Source of the DNA: Pseudomonadota bacterium | GTDB taxonomy: Bacteria > Pseudomonadota > Gammaproteobacteria > Steroidobacterales > GCA-2729495 | Assembly: GCA_963205295.1 (NCBI GenBank) | Contig: CAUJIY010000165.1 | Location: 1-64,000, forward strand | Direction: 5' to 3' | DNA: 64,000 nucleotides | Shown here: positions 733 to 12,682 of the stretch, piece after piece | How positions within the stretch are numbered: the stretch's first letter is position 1 | Layout: each line of letters begins with the position of its first letter | Made by a program: the position numbers and the translations under genes | Notes under the pieces: generated by a model | Seen by the model: only the letters and a program-made list of their open reading frames with translations | Database searches by the model: none | Told to the model about the DNA's origin: nothing

Positions 733-2133
733 TCAGGCGGGTCCATCCAGGTAATCCTCGAGGCGGATGGACTCGAACCCGGGTGTGCAGGGGCGCGCGA
801 GGGCGTCGCGGTCGCGGATACGCATGGTCGCGTCGATACCGACGCGCAGTGAGCCCTCGCCAGGGCGCGAGACGCGATCGAGTTCCCAGCTCTCGACGCC
901 GGGGATCAGGACCATCTGCTCGGGCGTTGCCAGCCGGCTCCAGATAGCCCATTCCACATCCTCGATGCTGTCGACGTCGACATCTTCGTCGACAATGATC
1001 ACCCGGCGGGCGATGCGACTCACCGGGAAGATGTTGCCTGGCGTCGAGAATACCCGGCGGATAAGTTCGGCCGGTTGTCCGTCGGCCTGCTTGGCGATGG
1101 CAATGGCGACGTGCACCATCGGGCCAAGGCGCGGATCGGAGAAAATGTTGACGCGACGCACGCAGGGATCGATCTGCAGCAGACGGGCGGCGAGGTCACG
1201 CTTGATGCCGTAGGTCGCGATCTTGCCGAGGGTGTTGTGCTCCGGGTTGCGCCCGGCCAGGATCGAACAGAAGAGCGGCTCGCGGCGGTGGGTGATAGCT
1301 GTGACGCGGGTCACCGGAGCGCTCTCGGGGCCATACTGGCCGGCGTACTCACCGAGCACATTGGTGCAGCGTCGCGAGAGATCGACCGTACCTTCGACGA
1401 CGAACTCGGCATTGGCAGGCACCAGCAGGTCACTCGTCAAGGCGCGCGTCACCTCGATTGGCGCTCCCTTCAAACCGCCGGCAATGTCGATCTCGGAAAT
1501 CGTCGGCGGCAGCTTGGAGGCCGCGGCGAACAGCAGCGCGGGTTCCACGCCGATGGCCAGCGCGATGGGCATTTCGCCGCCGTGCGCTGCGGCGTGCCCG
1601 TAGATGCGGCGCAGGTCGGAAAGCGAACTCGCATTGATCGCGCAAGAGTCGCGGCCGAGGATCAACGTGCGGTAGAAGCCGACGTTGATCACGCCTGAAT
1701 GCGGATGACGCGCGAAACCGACGCCCGCCGTGATGAACGGCCCGCTGTCGCGCTCGAAGAACCACGGTACCGGCAGGTGGCGCAGATCGAGGCTGTCGCC
1801 AGTGTGGATGACTTCATGGCAGGCACCGGTAGCGACCTCCACCGGCGCGATTGGCTGCGCTTTGGCCTGCTCGAGCGCCGCCTCCATATCTTTGTGGGTG
1901 AACCCGTCCGGCCCGCGTCCGAGCGCCGCGCCGAAACGCTCGACGCGACTGAAGAGTCCGCCGACCAATGGATATCGTGCTCCCCGGACCTGCTCGAAGA
2001 CGAATGCCTTGCCGGCAGCTTCGAGGCGCGTCATCACCGCAGCGAGTTCGAACCGGCTGTCGACCGGGCGGCGGATGCGCACCAGCTCACCACGCTGTTC
2101 CAGCGAAGTTACAAATGAGCGCATGTCCTGCAT
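733..2133 (-). CDS. ubiD: UbiD family decarboxylase
   Basis: From MQDMRSFVTSLEQRGELVRIRRPVD; UbiD-like core (ITAGVGFARHPHSGVINVGFYR, EFVVEGTVDL, GEYAGQYGPESAPV, RVIIVDEDVDVDSIEDVEWAIWSR). Confidence 0.85.
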   Translation of the reverse strand: MQDMRSFVTSLEQRGELVRIRRPVDSRFELAAVMTRLEAAGKAFVFEQVRGARYPLVGGLFSRVERFGAALGRGPDGFTHKDMEAALEQAKAQPIAPVEVATGACHEVIHTGDSLDLRHLPVPWFFERDSGPFITAGVGFARHPHSGVINVGFYRTLILGRDSCAINASSLSDLRRIYGHAAAHGGEMPIALAIGVEPALLFAAASKLPPTISEIDIAGGLKGAPIEVTRALTSDLLVPANAEFVVEGTVDLSRRCTNVLGEYAGQYGPESAPVTRVTAITHRREPLFCSILAGRNPEHNTLGKIATYGIKRDLAARLLQIDPCVRRVNIFSDPRLGPMVHVAIAIAKQADGQPAELIRRVFSTPGNIFPVSRIARRVIIVDEDVDVDSIEDVEWAIWSRLATPEQMVLIPGVESWELDRVSRPGEGSLRVGIDATMRIRDRDALARPCTPGFESIRLEDYLDGPA

Positions 2134-2243
2134 CAGGGACTCCGGTCGGGTCGATAGGGGTGAGGGCTGTCCTGGGGCCAGCGGAATTCTACGGGGATTC
2201 CATCGGGTGCCTGCAACCTGTCGATCGCCGACCGCCGTGCGGC

Positions 2244-3044
2244 TCAGCTGCCGCGCTCGTCGAGCGGGGTGACGAAGGGTGCCATGGCCTGCAGGAACGC
2301 ATCGGTGGCATCGAGCAGGATTGCCTGCTGGTCCTCGTGCCGAACGGCGGCGGCGAAGGCACCGAAACTCCACCGATCGGCATCCGGGATCGATGCCTCG
2401 ACCGTCCGCACCGGCAGCTGCAATCGAGCGGCGGCGACCGCCTCGGGCAATGCATCCGGATCGCGCCCGCCGTAGGCGAGAAGCACGGGGATATCCTGCG
2501 CCGCCAGATCCGTATACCAGGCCGGCATGGCTGCCCAGAGCACCAGGCCTGCGGCATTCCCAGGGTGGCGCGCGACGAACTCAGCGGCCATCGTGCCACC
2601 GAGGCCGTGTCCGCCGACGACCCAGTGGCGGATCTCGCGAAACCGCGGCATGACGCGCGCTGCGCAGTCGGCGGCGAACAGCGCGAGATTGAGCGGCATC
2701 GGGCACAGGACGACCAGGTGGCCGCGTGCCGCGAGGGCATGCAGGAGCGGAGCATAGGCCACGGGTGCGGCCCGGGCCGCAGGATAGAAGACGAGCCCGG
2801 TCACCGGATCGCCGTCGCGTGGCCGGAAGACGAGCCAGTCCGTGATCGAGACGATCACTGCCTCGTCCGAGTCGAGCGCAATCCGTGCCGAATTCGCCAC
2901 CGGTACGGTCTGGCGCGCCCAGGCGAGCACCGCGATTGCGCCGACCATGGTGACGGCGAAGACCCCGAGCAGGACGCGTCCGAGCCGCCGCCCGCTGGCA
3001 TTCAGCCAGGCGCCCGGAGAGAACCGCGGGCGGTACCTGCTCAT
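2244..3044 (-). CDS. Alpha/beta hydrolase with N-terminal membrane anchor
   Basis: MSRYRPRF... TM segment; GGHGLGGTMAAEF nucleophile elbow-like motif; ends next to the ubiD start. An upstream in-frame start at 3101 is possible. Confidence 0.7.
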   Translation of the reverse strand: MSRYRPRFSPGAWLNASGRRLGRVLLGVFAVTMVGAIAVLAWARQTVPVANSARIALDSDEAVIVSITDWLVFRPRDGDPVTGLVFYPAARAAPVAYAPLLHALAARGHLVVLCPMPLNLALFAADCAARVMPRFREIRHWVVGGHGLGGTMAAEFVARHPGNAAGLVLWAAMPAWYTDLAAQDIPVLLAYGGRDPDALPEAVAAARLQLPVRTVEASIPDADRWSFGAFAAAVRHEDQQAILLDATDAFLQAMAPFVTPLDERGS

Positions 3045-10433: not shown

Positions 10434-11489
10434 ATGCACGAACCCTGGAAACTGACCGGCCGTGTGAGCAGCGGTCTCGGCCGCGGCGCGAGCTTCGTCG
10501 ACCTGCCCTGGGTGCGGCTGGCGCTGCGGGAGCAGTTCGGGATCGAGCCGTTTCCCGGCACGTTGAACCTGCAACTCGTGGGGGAGGGTGCTGCAACCGG
10601 GCTGCGCTCGATCCTGGACCGTGACGCGCAGTTGCTGCCGCCGCCGGATGCCGCGAGCTGTGCGGCCGATCTGCTGCCGGTACGCATCGCCGACGCCGTG
10701 CCTGGCGTGGCGGTGGTGCCACGAGTGTCGGTGTATCCCACCGCGCAGATCGAGGTGATCGCGGCGCTCGCCCTGCGCACGCACGGCGCCTGGCGCGACG
10801 GAGATCTGGTCACGCTGTCCAGCGGCCGGATCGGTCGGCTCGATACCGTGATATTCGACGTCGATGGCACCCTGGTGGATTCGATCGAGGGCATGCACCT
10901 GGCGGCGGCGCGGGCCGCGGCGCCGTTCGGGCTCGACGTGCCCCTGGCAGCCGTACGGCGCGCGCTGAACGGTGGCGAGTCGCTCTGGCAGCTGATCATG
11001 CCGGCCGCCATGCGGGAGGACCGTGAAGTGGCGGCCATCCTGCGACAGGAGACCCTGCGTCACTGGCCGGCGGTGCTCGAGGAGAGCGTTACAGTCGTCC
11101 CCGGCCTGGGCGTCACGCTCGACTGCCTGCGCGGGGCCGGTCTGCGGCTCGCCATCTATACCGGTTCCCGCGGCGAATCGCTTCGCCCACTGGAACGCGC
11201 CGGTTTGATGGACCACTTCGAAGTCGTCGTCACCGCTGCCGATGTGAGCCGCGGGAAACCCGACCCCGAGGGGCTGCTGCAGTGCCTGGCGCGGCTCGAC
11301 TGTCGGCCGGAGACTGCAGCCTATGTCGGCGACACGCGCCACGACGTCGAAGCCGCGCGGGCTGCAGGCATGTGCGCCATCGGCGTTCTGACCGGCGCCG
11401 CGGACTCCGCGATGCTGTCGGCGGCGGGTGCCGACCGGCTTGCGGCCAGCCACCGTACGCTCCCGGCACTGCTTCAGATCACGCCCTGA
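10434..11489 (+). CDS. Fusion of DUF120 (CTP-dependent riboflavin kinase-like) domain and HAD-family phosphatase
   Basis: N-terminal domain GRVSSGLGRGASFVDLPWVRLALREQFGIEPFPGTLNLQL...QIEVIAALALRTHGAWRDGDLVTL matches archaeal RibK motifs. C-terminal domain VIFDVDGTLVDSIEG...IYTGSRGE...GKPDPEGL...YVGDTRHDVEAARAAGM is a HAD phosphatase. Confidence 0.85.
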   Translation: MHEPWKLTGRVSSGLGRGASFVDLPWVRLALREQFGIEPFPGTLNLQLVGEGAATGLRSILDRDAQLLPPPDAASCAADLLPVRIADAVPGVAVVPRVSVYPTAQIEVIAALALRTHGAWRDGDLVTLSSGRIGRLDTVIFDVDGTLVDSIEGMHLAAARAAAPFGLDVPLAAVRRALNGGESLWQLIMPAAMREDREVAAILRQETLRHWPAVLEESVTVVPGLGVTLDCLRGAGLRLAIYTGSRGESLRPLERAGLMDHFEVVVTAADVSRGKPDPEGLLQCLARLDCRPETAAYVGDTRHDVEAARAAGMCAIGVLTGAADSAMLSAAGADRLAASHRTLPALLQITP

Positions 11490-12682
11490 TCCTGCAGGCG
11501 GCGCAGGTCGGCCGCGGTGTAACCGAGCAAGCCGCCGAAGACTTCCTGGTTGTGGGCGCCGATGGCGGGCCCCGGCCATACCGTGCGCCCTGGCGTGTCG
11601 CTGAGGAAGGGCACCATGGCCGGAATGGTCAGTTCACCGCCGTCGACTTCGACCTTTTCGAACAGGCCGCGGGCGCGGAAATGCTCGTCCTTCATCATGT
11701 CGCCGACGCTGTAGATCGGGCCTGCCGGGACGTCCACTTTTTCGAGTGCCGCCAGGACCTCGGCACTGGTCAGCGTACCGGTCCAGGTGGTGATGGCCGC
11801 GTCGAGTTCCTTCTCGTGCTGCACGCGGCCGGCATTGCTGGCCATGCGCGGGTCGTCGGCGAGGTCCTGGCGCCCGATCGCGCCCATGAGGCGCTTGTAG
11901 ATCGAGTCGCCGTTGCCACCGATGATCACGAAGCGGCCGTCGCGGCAGCGATAGGTGTTGGTCGGGACGATGCCGGTCAGCGTCGAGCCCGACGGTTCGC
12001 GGACCACGCCGGCGCCGGAATACTCCGGCACCACGCCTTCCATCATGTTGAAGACGGCCTCGTAGAGCGCCGTATCGACGACCTGGCCCTGGTGGCCCGC
12101 GCCCTTGAGGCGATGCACGCAGGCGAGCAGGATGCCGATCACACTGTGCACGGCGGCCAGGGTATCGCCGAGGCTGAGGTTCGGCCTGACCGGCGCCTCG
12201 CCCGGAAAACCGTTGACGTAACGGAACCCGCCGACGCCTTCACAGACCGAGGCGAATCCGGTGCGGGAGGCATAGGGACCGGTCTGCCCGTAGCCCGAGA
12301 TGCGCGCGTAGATGAGTTCGGGGTGGGTGCGGCGCAGATCGTCCGGACCAAGTCCCCATTTTTCCATGGTGCCGGGGCGGAAGTTCTCCACGAGGATGTC
12401 GGACTTCGCGGCCAGCTGACGCACGAGTTCACGGCCCTCCGGGGTGCGCATGTTGACGGTGACGCACTTCTTGTTGCGTCCCAGGCTGTGCCACCACAGT
12501 GAAACACCGTCTTTCATGACGCGCCAGGTGCGGATCGGATCACCCGTGCCGGGCGGCTCGACCTTGATGACCTCGGCACCGTAGTAGCCAAGCATGCTGG
12601 TGGCGAAGGGGCCGGCGAGAAGCTGGCCCAGCTCGAGGACGCGAAAGCCGTCGAGCGGACGGGGGCGTTCGTTGATGCTCAT
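11474..12682 (-). CDS. CaiB/BaiF family (class III) CoA-transferase
   Basis: LDGFRVLELGQLLAGPFATSMLGYYGAEVIKVEPPGTGDPIRTW; SLGRNKKCVTVNMRTPEGRELVRQL; VENFRPGTMEKWGLG. Confidence 0.93.
   Translation of the reverse strand: MSINERPRPLDGFRVLELGQLLAGPFATSMLGYYGAEVIKVEPPGTGDPIRTWRVMKDGVSLWWHSLGRNKKCVTVNMRTPEGRELVRQLAAKSDILVENFRPGTMEKWGLGPDDLRRTHPELIYARISGYGQTGPYASRTGFASVCEGVGGFRYVNGFPGEAPVRPNLSLGDTLAAVHSVIGILLACVHRLKGAGHQGQVVDTALYEAVFNMMEGVVPEYSGAGVVREPSGSTLTGIVPTNTYRCRDGRFVIIGGNGDSIYKRLMGAIGRQDLADDPRMASNAGRVQHEKELDAAITTWTGTLTSAEVLAALEKVDVPAGPIYSVGDMMKDEHFRARGLFEKVEVDGGELTIPAMVPFLSDTPGRTVWPGPAIGAHNQEVFGGLLGYTAADLRRLQDQGVI

What the first reader, a model, noticed from the sequence alone, without database searches (positions are those of the whole stretch)
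10434..11489. Archaeal-type CTP-dependent riboflavin kinase (DUF120) domain fused to a HAD phosphatase
The N-terminal ~135 aa carry the diagnostic motifs of the archaeal RibK/DUF120 family: the SGLGRGASFVDLP loop, EPFPGTLNLQL, and a distal EVIAALALRTHGAWRDGDLVTL segment. The rest is an intact HAD phosphatase with DVDGT, TGS, GKPDP and GDTRHD motifs. Plants have a bifunctional riboflavin kinase/FMN hydrolase that joins a HAD domain to an unrelated RibF-type kinase. This bacterial protein would combine the same two opposing activities from a non-homologous kinase in the reverse domain order. It could be a flavin salvage or FMN homeostasis enzyme, or the kinase domain may act on another substrate. 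The gene sits alone between a yqjDEK-like cluster and a convergent CoA-transferase gene, so its function is not given by context.
Basis: partly seen in the sequence, partly recalled or inferred. Interest (0 to 1): 0.75.

Follow-up and report, generated by a model that had tools for sequence, protein, structure and literature searches.

The report
Fused flavin kinase–phosphatase linked to UbiD
This bacterial gene joins an archaeal-type vitamin B2 kinase to a phosphatase; across many microbes the kinase domain sits beside the genes that make or use prenylated FMN (UbiX and UbiD), so it is probably an unrecognised accessory enzyme for supplying that cofactor.

Summary
Window 10434-11489 (+) encodes 351 aa: a CTP-dependent riboflavin kinase domain (DUF120, PF01982, 74.5 bits, residues 11-128) followed by a HAD phosphatase (residues 139-318) with all catalytic motifs. 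The predicted model is confident (pLDDT 92.5, pTM 0.90).

Relatives show otherwise. In 80 DUF120 loci ranked only by similarity, 31 of 63 bacterial ones have UbiX or UbiD within 8 kb, and UbiX is within 300 bp in 22. The ordinary riboflavin kinase RibF has neither nearby in 20 matched loci. In the window's own family the fusion abuts a UbiD gene in 8 of 16 relatives, with a UbiD remnant in two more. Six carry, upstream, the orthologue of the window's own UbiD (733-2373). In a 339-genome class sample, all five genomes with five or more UbiD copies carry DUF120.

27 of 28 bacterial carriers also have RibF, so this is not housekeeping FMN synthesis. Best reading: an accessory flavin kinase-phosphatase serving the prenylated-FMN (UbiX/UbiD) cofactor. 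The kinase substrate and the HAD's job are inferred. No paper in the searched library describes this link. I rate it a new variant of a known kind, interest 0.66.

The parts
10434..11489 (+). DUF120-HAD fusion gene, 351 aa
   Evidence: intact ORF; Pfam; AlphaFold mean pLDDT 92.5, pTM 0.90; orthologues in the same genus and family
10434..10817 (+). CTP-dependent riboflavin kinase (DUF120, RibK-type) domain, residues 1-128: loop G14-L-G-R-G18, P41-G-T43-L-N45, C76, E107, R115
   Evidence: PF01982 74.5 bits; MJ0056 E 1e-10; residue counts in bacteria and archaea
10848..11489 (+). HAD phosphatase domain: D142-x-D144-G-T, T243-G-S, K275-P-D-P, G299-D300-x-x-x-D304
   Evidence: HAD_2 E 2e-31; motif positions; conservation in 14 fusions; nearest solved structures are phosphoglycolate phosphatase, beta-phosphoglucomutase and BT2121 pyrophosphatase types
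733..2373 (-). UbiD-family (prenylated-FMN-dependent) decarboxylase
   Evidence: PF01977 180 bits plus PF20695 and PF20696; its orthologue (51-60% identity) lies upstream of the DUF120-HAD gene in six relatives
11474..12682 (-). CaiB/BaiF-type CoA-transferase gene (name from sequence, not profiled), convergent with the fusion; in eight relatives an intact UbiD gene lies between the two
   Evidence: ORF; synteny

Best explanation
The gene encodes a bifunctional accessory enzyme of the UbiX/UbiD prenylated-FMN (prFMN) system. The N-terminal DUF120 domain most likely transfers phosphate from CTP to riboflavin, making FMN outside the RibF route, which runs on to FAD; UbiX prenylates FMNH2 to prFMNH2 for UbiD decarboxylases. 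The C-terminal HAD domain most likely removes a phosphate within the same small pathway, as a flavin 5'-phosphate hydrolase acting on FMN or on damaged prFMN so that the flavin can be recycled. Shown here: the domains, conserved catalytic residues, genomic linkage to UbiX/UbiD, and a bacterial-type subfamily distinct from housekeeping archaeal RibK. Inferred: riboflavin as the substrate (about 0.6), the direction of the link (cofactor supply), and the HAD substrate (about 0.3 for a flavin phosphate).
For: UbiX or UbiD lies within 8 kb of DUF120 in 31/63 bacterial loci, UbiX within 300 bp in 22. In 20 RibF loci from carrier genomes there is none (Fisher p 2.6e-5). Directly adjacent UbiX occurs in Rhodocyclales, Syntrophaceae, Binatia, Nitrospinota, Anaerolineae and the archaeon Geoglobus; UbiD or UbiX also flanks fusions in Bacillota and Gammaproteobacteria. 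In the window's own family, 8 of 16 relatives have an intact UbiD gene between DUF120-HAD and the CaiB gene, two have a UbiD remnant, L031 has two UbiD genes directly upstream, and six have the window's UbiD orthologue upstream. In the class sample all five genomes with >=5 UbiD copies have DUF120; the rest have 3 or fewer. RibF is present in 27/28 bacterial carriers. Geoglobus and two Bathyarchaeota carry a canonical RibK besides this type. Catalytic residues P41-G-T43-N45 and E107 are kept in all 67 bacterial rows; HAD catalytic residues are kept in the fusions. Other linked genes suit prFMN: type 1 IPP isomerase (makes DMAPP) and a PNPOx-like gene directly upstream in L061, with the same arrangement in L053; Nudix genes in L044 and L055; fusion to a PNPOx-like domain in Chloroflexi.
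Against: About half of bacterial DUF120 loci have no UbiD or UbiX within 8 kb. L093 (Aliiruegeria) has DUF120 fused to a glyoxalase domain and no UbiD match in its genome. In the window itself UbiD is 8 kb away with unrelated genes between, and the own UbiX is on another contig. Bacterial DUF120 differs from archaeal RibK near the presumed substrate site (V98 for K/R, mixed residues at T99, invariant C76), so the substrate may have changed. UbiD and UbiX also mark aromatic-degradation islands, so the link could be to a pathway rather than to the cofactor. Nothing here tests activity.
Confidence: 0.58

Rival explanations
1. General FMN homeostasis: a riboflavin kinase and an FMN hydrolase in one protein, as in the plant enzyme AtFHy/RFK, with no special tie to prenylated FMN.
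For: Same pair of presumed activities as the plant enzyme, whose HAD module hydrolyses FMN and whose other module is a riboflavin kinase (PMC2972280). Both catalytic sites are conserved. Fusions occur in both domain orders.
Against: Carriers already have RibF. Strong non-random neighbourhood with UbiX/UbiD and with UbiD copy number.
Confidence: 0.17
2. The protein supplies the other UbiX substrate, or both: the HAD domain cuts DMAPP to DMAP (or DUF120 phosphorylates prenol), because many UbiX enzymes need dimethylallyl monophosphate, whose source is not established.
For: UbiX enzymes differ in using DMAP or DMAPP (PMC6541611). Type 1 IPP isomerase lies upstream of the fusion in L061, with the same gene order in L053. 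A Nudix gene adjoins DUF120 or UbiX in L018, L040, L043, L044, L047, L052, L055 and L092. HAD relatives include the pyrophosphatases PpaX and BT2121. DUF120 substrate-side residues differ from archaeal RibK.
Against: DUF120 enzymes with solved structures are riboflavin kinases. HAD and Nudix are both present in L055 and L092, so the HAD is not simply a Nudix substitute. HAD relatives that act on allylic diphosphates are not known to me.
Confidence: 0.13
3. DUF120 of this type is a non-catalytic or barely catalytic flavin carrier, a prFMN or FMN chaperone in the manner of LpdD, with the HAD as a passenger.
For: UbiD partner proteins such as the chaperone LpdD and the maturase PhdC exist (PMC10865409, PMC13040415), and other UbiD-linked genes are described there as diverse with many of unknown function.
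Against: The presumed metal- and phosphate-site residues P41-G-T43-N45 and E107 are invariant in 67 bacterial rows, which suggests catalysis is kept.
Confidence: 0.07
4. The association with UbiD reflects shared residence in catabolic gene islands; the fusion acts on some other metabolite.
For: Half of the loci lack UbiD/UbiX. Chloroflexi fusions lie near molybdenum-hydroxylase-like genes (names from sequence only).
Against: Adjacency recurs in unrelated lineages with different pathways, often overlapping or within 5-70 bp of UbiX.
Confidence: 0.05

Closest known systems
Archaeal CTP-dependent riboflavin kinase RibK (MJ0056, TA1064/RbkR; PF01982)
   Same: Homologous domain, GLGxG loop, PGTLN motif, conserved Glu107 and Arg115.
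   Different: Bacterial type has C76 (66/67), W26 (65/67) and V98 (60/67) where archaeal rows mostly do not; RibF is also present; linked to UbiX/UbiD; fused to HAD.
Plant bifunctional FMN hydrolase/riboflavin kinase (AtFHy/RFK)
   Same: A HAD domain fused to a riboflavin kinase; in the HAD-DUF120 proteins (L004-L006, L048, L098) even the same order.
   Different: The plant kinase is of the RibF/flavokinase type (PF01687), unrelated to DUF120; order reversed in the window protein; no UbiD context.
UbiD accessory proteins LpdD (prFMNH2 chaperone) and PhdC (prFMN maturase)
   Same: Small genes travelling with ubiX/ubiD that help make active UbiD.
   Different: Different folds and chemistry: LpdD is like Pba3/4, PhdC like HpaC flavin reductase; neither is a kinase or phosphatase.
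HAD subfamily IA phosphatases (phosphoglycolate phosphatase, beta-PGM, BT2121 pyrophosphatase, AlnB)
   Same: All four HAD motifs, capped fold.
   Different: Below every equivalog cut-off shown, e.g. 119 of 180 bits for PGP_bact; substrate not assignable; fused to a kinase.

Membership tests
CTP-dependent riboflavin kinase, PF01982 | Profile match above the gathering score | tested here: met
   74.5 bits vs 25; 76.9 bits in the genome search
CTP-dependent riboflavin kinase, PF01982 | PGTLN motif and conserved Glu/Arg of the presumed active site | tested here: met
   T43, N45, E107 and R115 present; alignment with MJ0056
CTP-dependent riboflavin kinase, PF01982 | Match to the NCBI equivalog ribK_Meth above its cut-off | tested here: not met
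   46.9 bits vs 168: a homologue, not an equivalog by that model
CTP-dependent riboflavin kinase, PF01982 | CTP as phosphate donor and riboflavin as acceptor | not testable with these tools
   needs an enzyme assay; substrate-side residues 98 and 99 differ from archaeal RibK
HAD phosphatase | DxDGT, S/T, K and GDxxxD motifs | tested here: met
   D142, D144, T243, K275, D300, D304
HAD phosphatase | Substrate identity (FMN or other) | not testable with these tools
   no equivalog model passes
Plant FMN hydrolase/riboflavin kinase | Kinase half of flavokinase type PF01687 | tested here: not met
   Pfam scan of the protein shows no PF01687; the genome's PF01687 gene is elsewhere
UbiX/UbiD accessory gene | Conserved neighbourhood with ubiX or ubiD beyond matched controls | tested here: met
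   31/63 vs 0/20; family synteny
UbiX/UbiD accessory gene | Required for holo-UbiD or prFMN formation | not testable with these tools
   needs genetics and flavin analysis

The most novel reading that the evidence does not exclude
A previously unrecognised branch of prenylated-FMN metabolism: a DUF120 subfamily (signature C76/W26/V98) dedicated to UbiX/UbiD, acting on a substrate other than plain riboflavin (reduced or prenylated riboflavin, or prenol), with the fused HAD making DMAP or clearing dead prFMN, so that one protein supplies or repairs both halves of the cofactor.
Probability: 0.25. Interest if true: 0.85.

Novelty: new variant of a known kind. Interest (0 to 1): 0.66.

Why it matters
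UbiD decarboxylases drive ubiquinone synthesis and anaerobic breakdown of phenol and other aromatics, and are wanted as biocatalysts, but many cannot be made active with UbiX alone (PMC10865409). A kinase that recurs beside ubiX in widely separated lineages is a ready candidate for a missing accessory factor and can be tested by co-expression. It also shows bacteria using the archaeal type of riboflavin kinase in addition to RibF, and several separate fusions of a riboflavin-kinase-type domain with HAD domains, parallel to the plant enzyme.

Tried and rejected
Chance motif match: rejected. DUF120 as the cell's only riboflavin kinase: rejected, RibF is present. Recent acquisition by composition: no sign, GC3 0.83 equals the neighbours', though presence in the genus and family is patchy. 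Spread on plasmids: no match. A five-sequence alignment was too divergent for the genome-contig scan; a three-sequence one worked. The whole-protein phylum search returned mainly HAD paralogues and was not useful. Foldseek on the whole model listed only HAD matches in its top 50, so the DUF120 fold rests on sequence similarity to MJ0056. The tree cannot place the window row: long branch, few columns. The original papers on MJ0056 and RbkR were not held, so no structure-based residue roles are claimed. Paper searches for UbiX/UbiD with riboflavin kinase, and for DUF120 or PF01982, gave nothing on this link; subscription journals are mostly not covered.

Full report
What is there. Window 10434-11489 (+) is one intact ORF of 351 aa. 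Its first 128 residues match PF01982, the CTP-dependent riboflavin kinase family formerly called DUF120, at 74.5 bits, and the rest is a HAD phosphatase, HAD_2 E 2e-31. The kinase half aligns over its length with the solved riboflavin kinases MJ0056 (E 1e-10) and TA1064. The HAD half keeps D142, D144, T243, K275, D300 and D304 and is closest to phosphoglycolate phosphatase, beta-phosphoglucomutase and BT2121 pyrophosphatase structures, but passes no equivalog cut-off. AlphaFold2 gives mean pLDDT 92.5 and pTM 0.90, with both domains well defined.

How rare it is. In a sample of 369 genomes of the same class, only seven match PF01982 above the cut-off. Within the window's family the gene is patchy but the fusion is stable: 17 of 118 relatives carry it, all from the same genus or family, with open frames of about 350-590 aa except one of 225 aa cut off by its contig. 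A scan of one genome per species found DUF120 in many bacterial phyla. Architectures are DUF120-HAD (Gammaproteobacteria, Acidobacteria, Thermodesulfobacteriota, Bacillota), HAD-DUF120 (L004-L006, L048, L098), DUF120 fused to a PNPOx-like domain (Chloroflexi), a glyoxalase-DUF120 fusion (L093) and standalone DUF120. HAD domains of at least three distinct groups are joined to DUF120, so the partnership arose more than once.

Not housekeeping. This genome has RibF, and 27 of 28 other bacterial carriers searched have it too. The archaeon Geoglobus (L086) has an operon UbiX-DUF120-UbiD and, elsewhere, a second canonical DUF120 protein; two Bathyarchaeota also have two copies. In an alignment of 86 domains, PGTxN and E107 are invariant in the 67 bacterial rows, while C76 (66/67), W26 (65/67) and V98 (60/67) mark the bacterial type; the Geoglobus operon copy shares C76 and W26 and falls outside the canonical archaeal clade in the tree, though on a long branch.

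The neighbourhood. I built profiles of UbiD and UbiX from the loci (Pfam and NCBIfam confirm examples) and searched all 80 loci, which had been chosen only by similarity to the window's DUF120 domain. Of 63 bacterial loci, 22 have UbiX within 300 bp, 28 have UbiX or UbiD within 1.5 kb and 31 within 8 kb; of 17 archaeal loci, one. As a matched control I took RibF loci from 20 carrier genomes: none has UbiX or UbiD within 8 kb (Fisher p 2.6e-5; loci within a clade are not independent). Adjacent pairs occur in Rhodocyclales clusters with several UbiD genes, Syntrophaceae, Binatia, Nitrospinota, Anaerolineae and Geoglobus. Among fusions, L031 has two UbiD genes directly upstream, L026 and L045 have UbiD next door, and L055 and L092 run DUF120-HAD, an unknown 187-aa ORF, UbiX, Nudix.

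The window's own family settles the local question. Twelve further family loci plus L026, L027, L031 and L045 were compared gene by gene with the window. The order DUF120-HAD, CaiB-like, (methyltransferase), kinase-like, HNH-like, aspartokinase-homoserine dehydrogenase is shared. In eight of the 16 an intact UbiD gene of about 500 codons lies between DUF120-HAD and the CaiB-like gene. In L156 and L157, same genus as the window, a 73-87 aa UbiD remnant is left there; in the window, L158, L162, L163, L167 and L027 it is absent. The window's own UbiD (733-2373, -) has orthologues at 51-60% identity upstream of DUF120-HAD in six relatives. The genome holds six UbiD genes, one of which (L108, on another contig) is of the same type as those flanking the fusion in relatives (39-42% identity). 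In a 339-genome class sample all five genomes with five or more UbiD copies carry DUF120, while the others have three or fewer.

Mechanism. Established knowledge: UbiX joins FMNH2 with DMAP or DMAPP to give prFMNH2, which UbiD oxidises and uses (PMC6541611). UbiX alone often does not give active UbiD, and other UbiD-linked genes are diverse with many of unknown function (PMC10865409); PhdC and LpdD are two accessory proteins now understood. Inference: DUF120 makes FMN from riboflavin and CTP next to UbiX, outside the RibF route that runs on to FAD. The HAD half probably removes a phosphate from a flavin (FMN or damaged prFMN), in parallel with the plant FMN hydrolase/riboflavin kinase (PMC2972280). 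A rival is that the HAD makes DMAP from DMAPP: type 1 IPP isomerase lies two genes upstream of the fusion in L061 and Nudix genes adjoin DUF120 or UbiX in others, but L055 and L092 have both HAD and Nudix, which weakens a simple replacement. The changed residues 98 and 99 leave open that the kinase substrate is not plain riboflavin.

Novelty and limits. The domain family, the HAD fold and the idea of a kinase-phosphatase flavin enzyme are known. No paper in the held library links DUF120 to UbiX or UbiD, but subscription journals are mostly missing. The loci are mostly metagenome-assembled genomes; genes were called as open frames; neighbour names without a cited profile are read from sequence only. 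I rate it a new variant of a known kind, interest 0.66.

Noticed in passing
L033, L036, L037, L041 (Chloroflexi/Anaerolineae): DUF120 fused to a C-terminal PNPOx-like flavin-binding domain; a free homologue of that domain lies beside DUF120-HAD in L061 (9191-9664, -). Possibly a flavin reductase or prFMN maturase.
   Followed up: partly
L061:4777-9035 and L053:314-4517: Butyrate-kinase-like and phosphotransbutyrylase-like genes, type 1 IPP isomerase, PNPOx-like gene and DUF120-HAD run on one strand, suggesting an operon; why the kinase pair is there is unexplained.
   Followed up: partly
L055:1164-1727 and L092:6272-6835: A 187-aa ORF between DUF120-HAD and UbiX with no Pfam or NCBIfam match; candidate for another prFMN accessory protein.
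   Followed up: no
L093:45-1052 (Aliiruegeria sabulilitoris): Glyoxalase/VOC domain fused in front of DUF120; the genome has RibF but no UbiD match, an exception to the linkage.
   Followed up: partly
L050, L058 (9057-9725), L078 (9243-9890): A second HAD type with DWEGT or DFEGT in place of DxDGT lies beside DUF120-HAD, and in L050 is itself fused to DUF120.
   Followed up: partly
L069, L072, L076, L100: Small DUF120 proteins in Bathyarchaeota (and L069, labelled Deltaproteobacteria) share neighbours that read like an F420 ligase (CofE) and an ADP-forming acyl-CoA synthetase; perhaps another specialised branch. Two of these genomes (L072, L076) also hold a second, stronger DUF120 match.
   Followed up: no
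L007 (G180): A weak partial DUF120 match (31 bits) at the start of a glycosyltransferase-like ORF in a small genome without a listed UbiD match.
   Followed up: no
L108:324-1958 (own genome, contig C110): The UbiD of the type that flanks DUF120-HAD in relatives begins with a twin-arginine-like signal (SRRELLTAG), suggesting export of a UbiD enzyme.
   Followed up: no
L062, L063, L067, L085, L097 and genome G767 (L063): Binatia-type loci with DUF120 directly before UbiX; the L063 genome holds 38 UbiD matches, an unusually large set.
   Followed up: no
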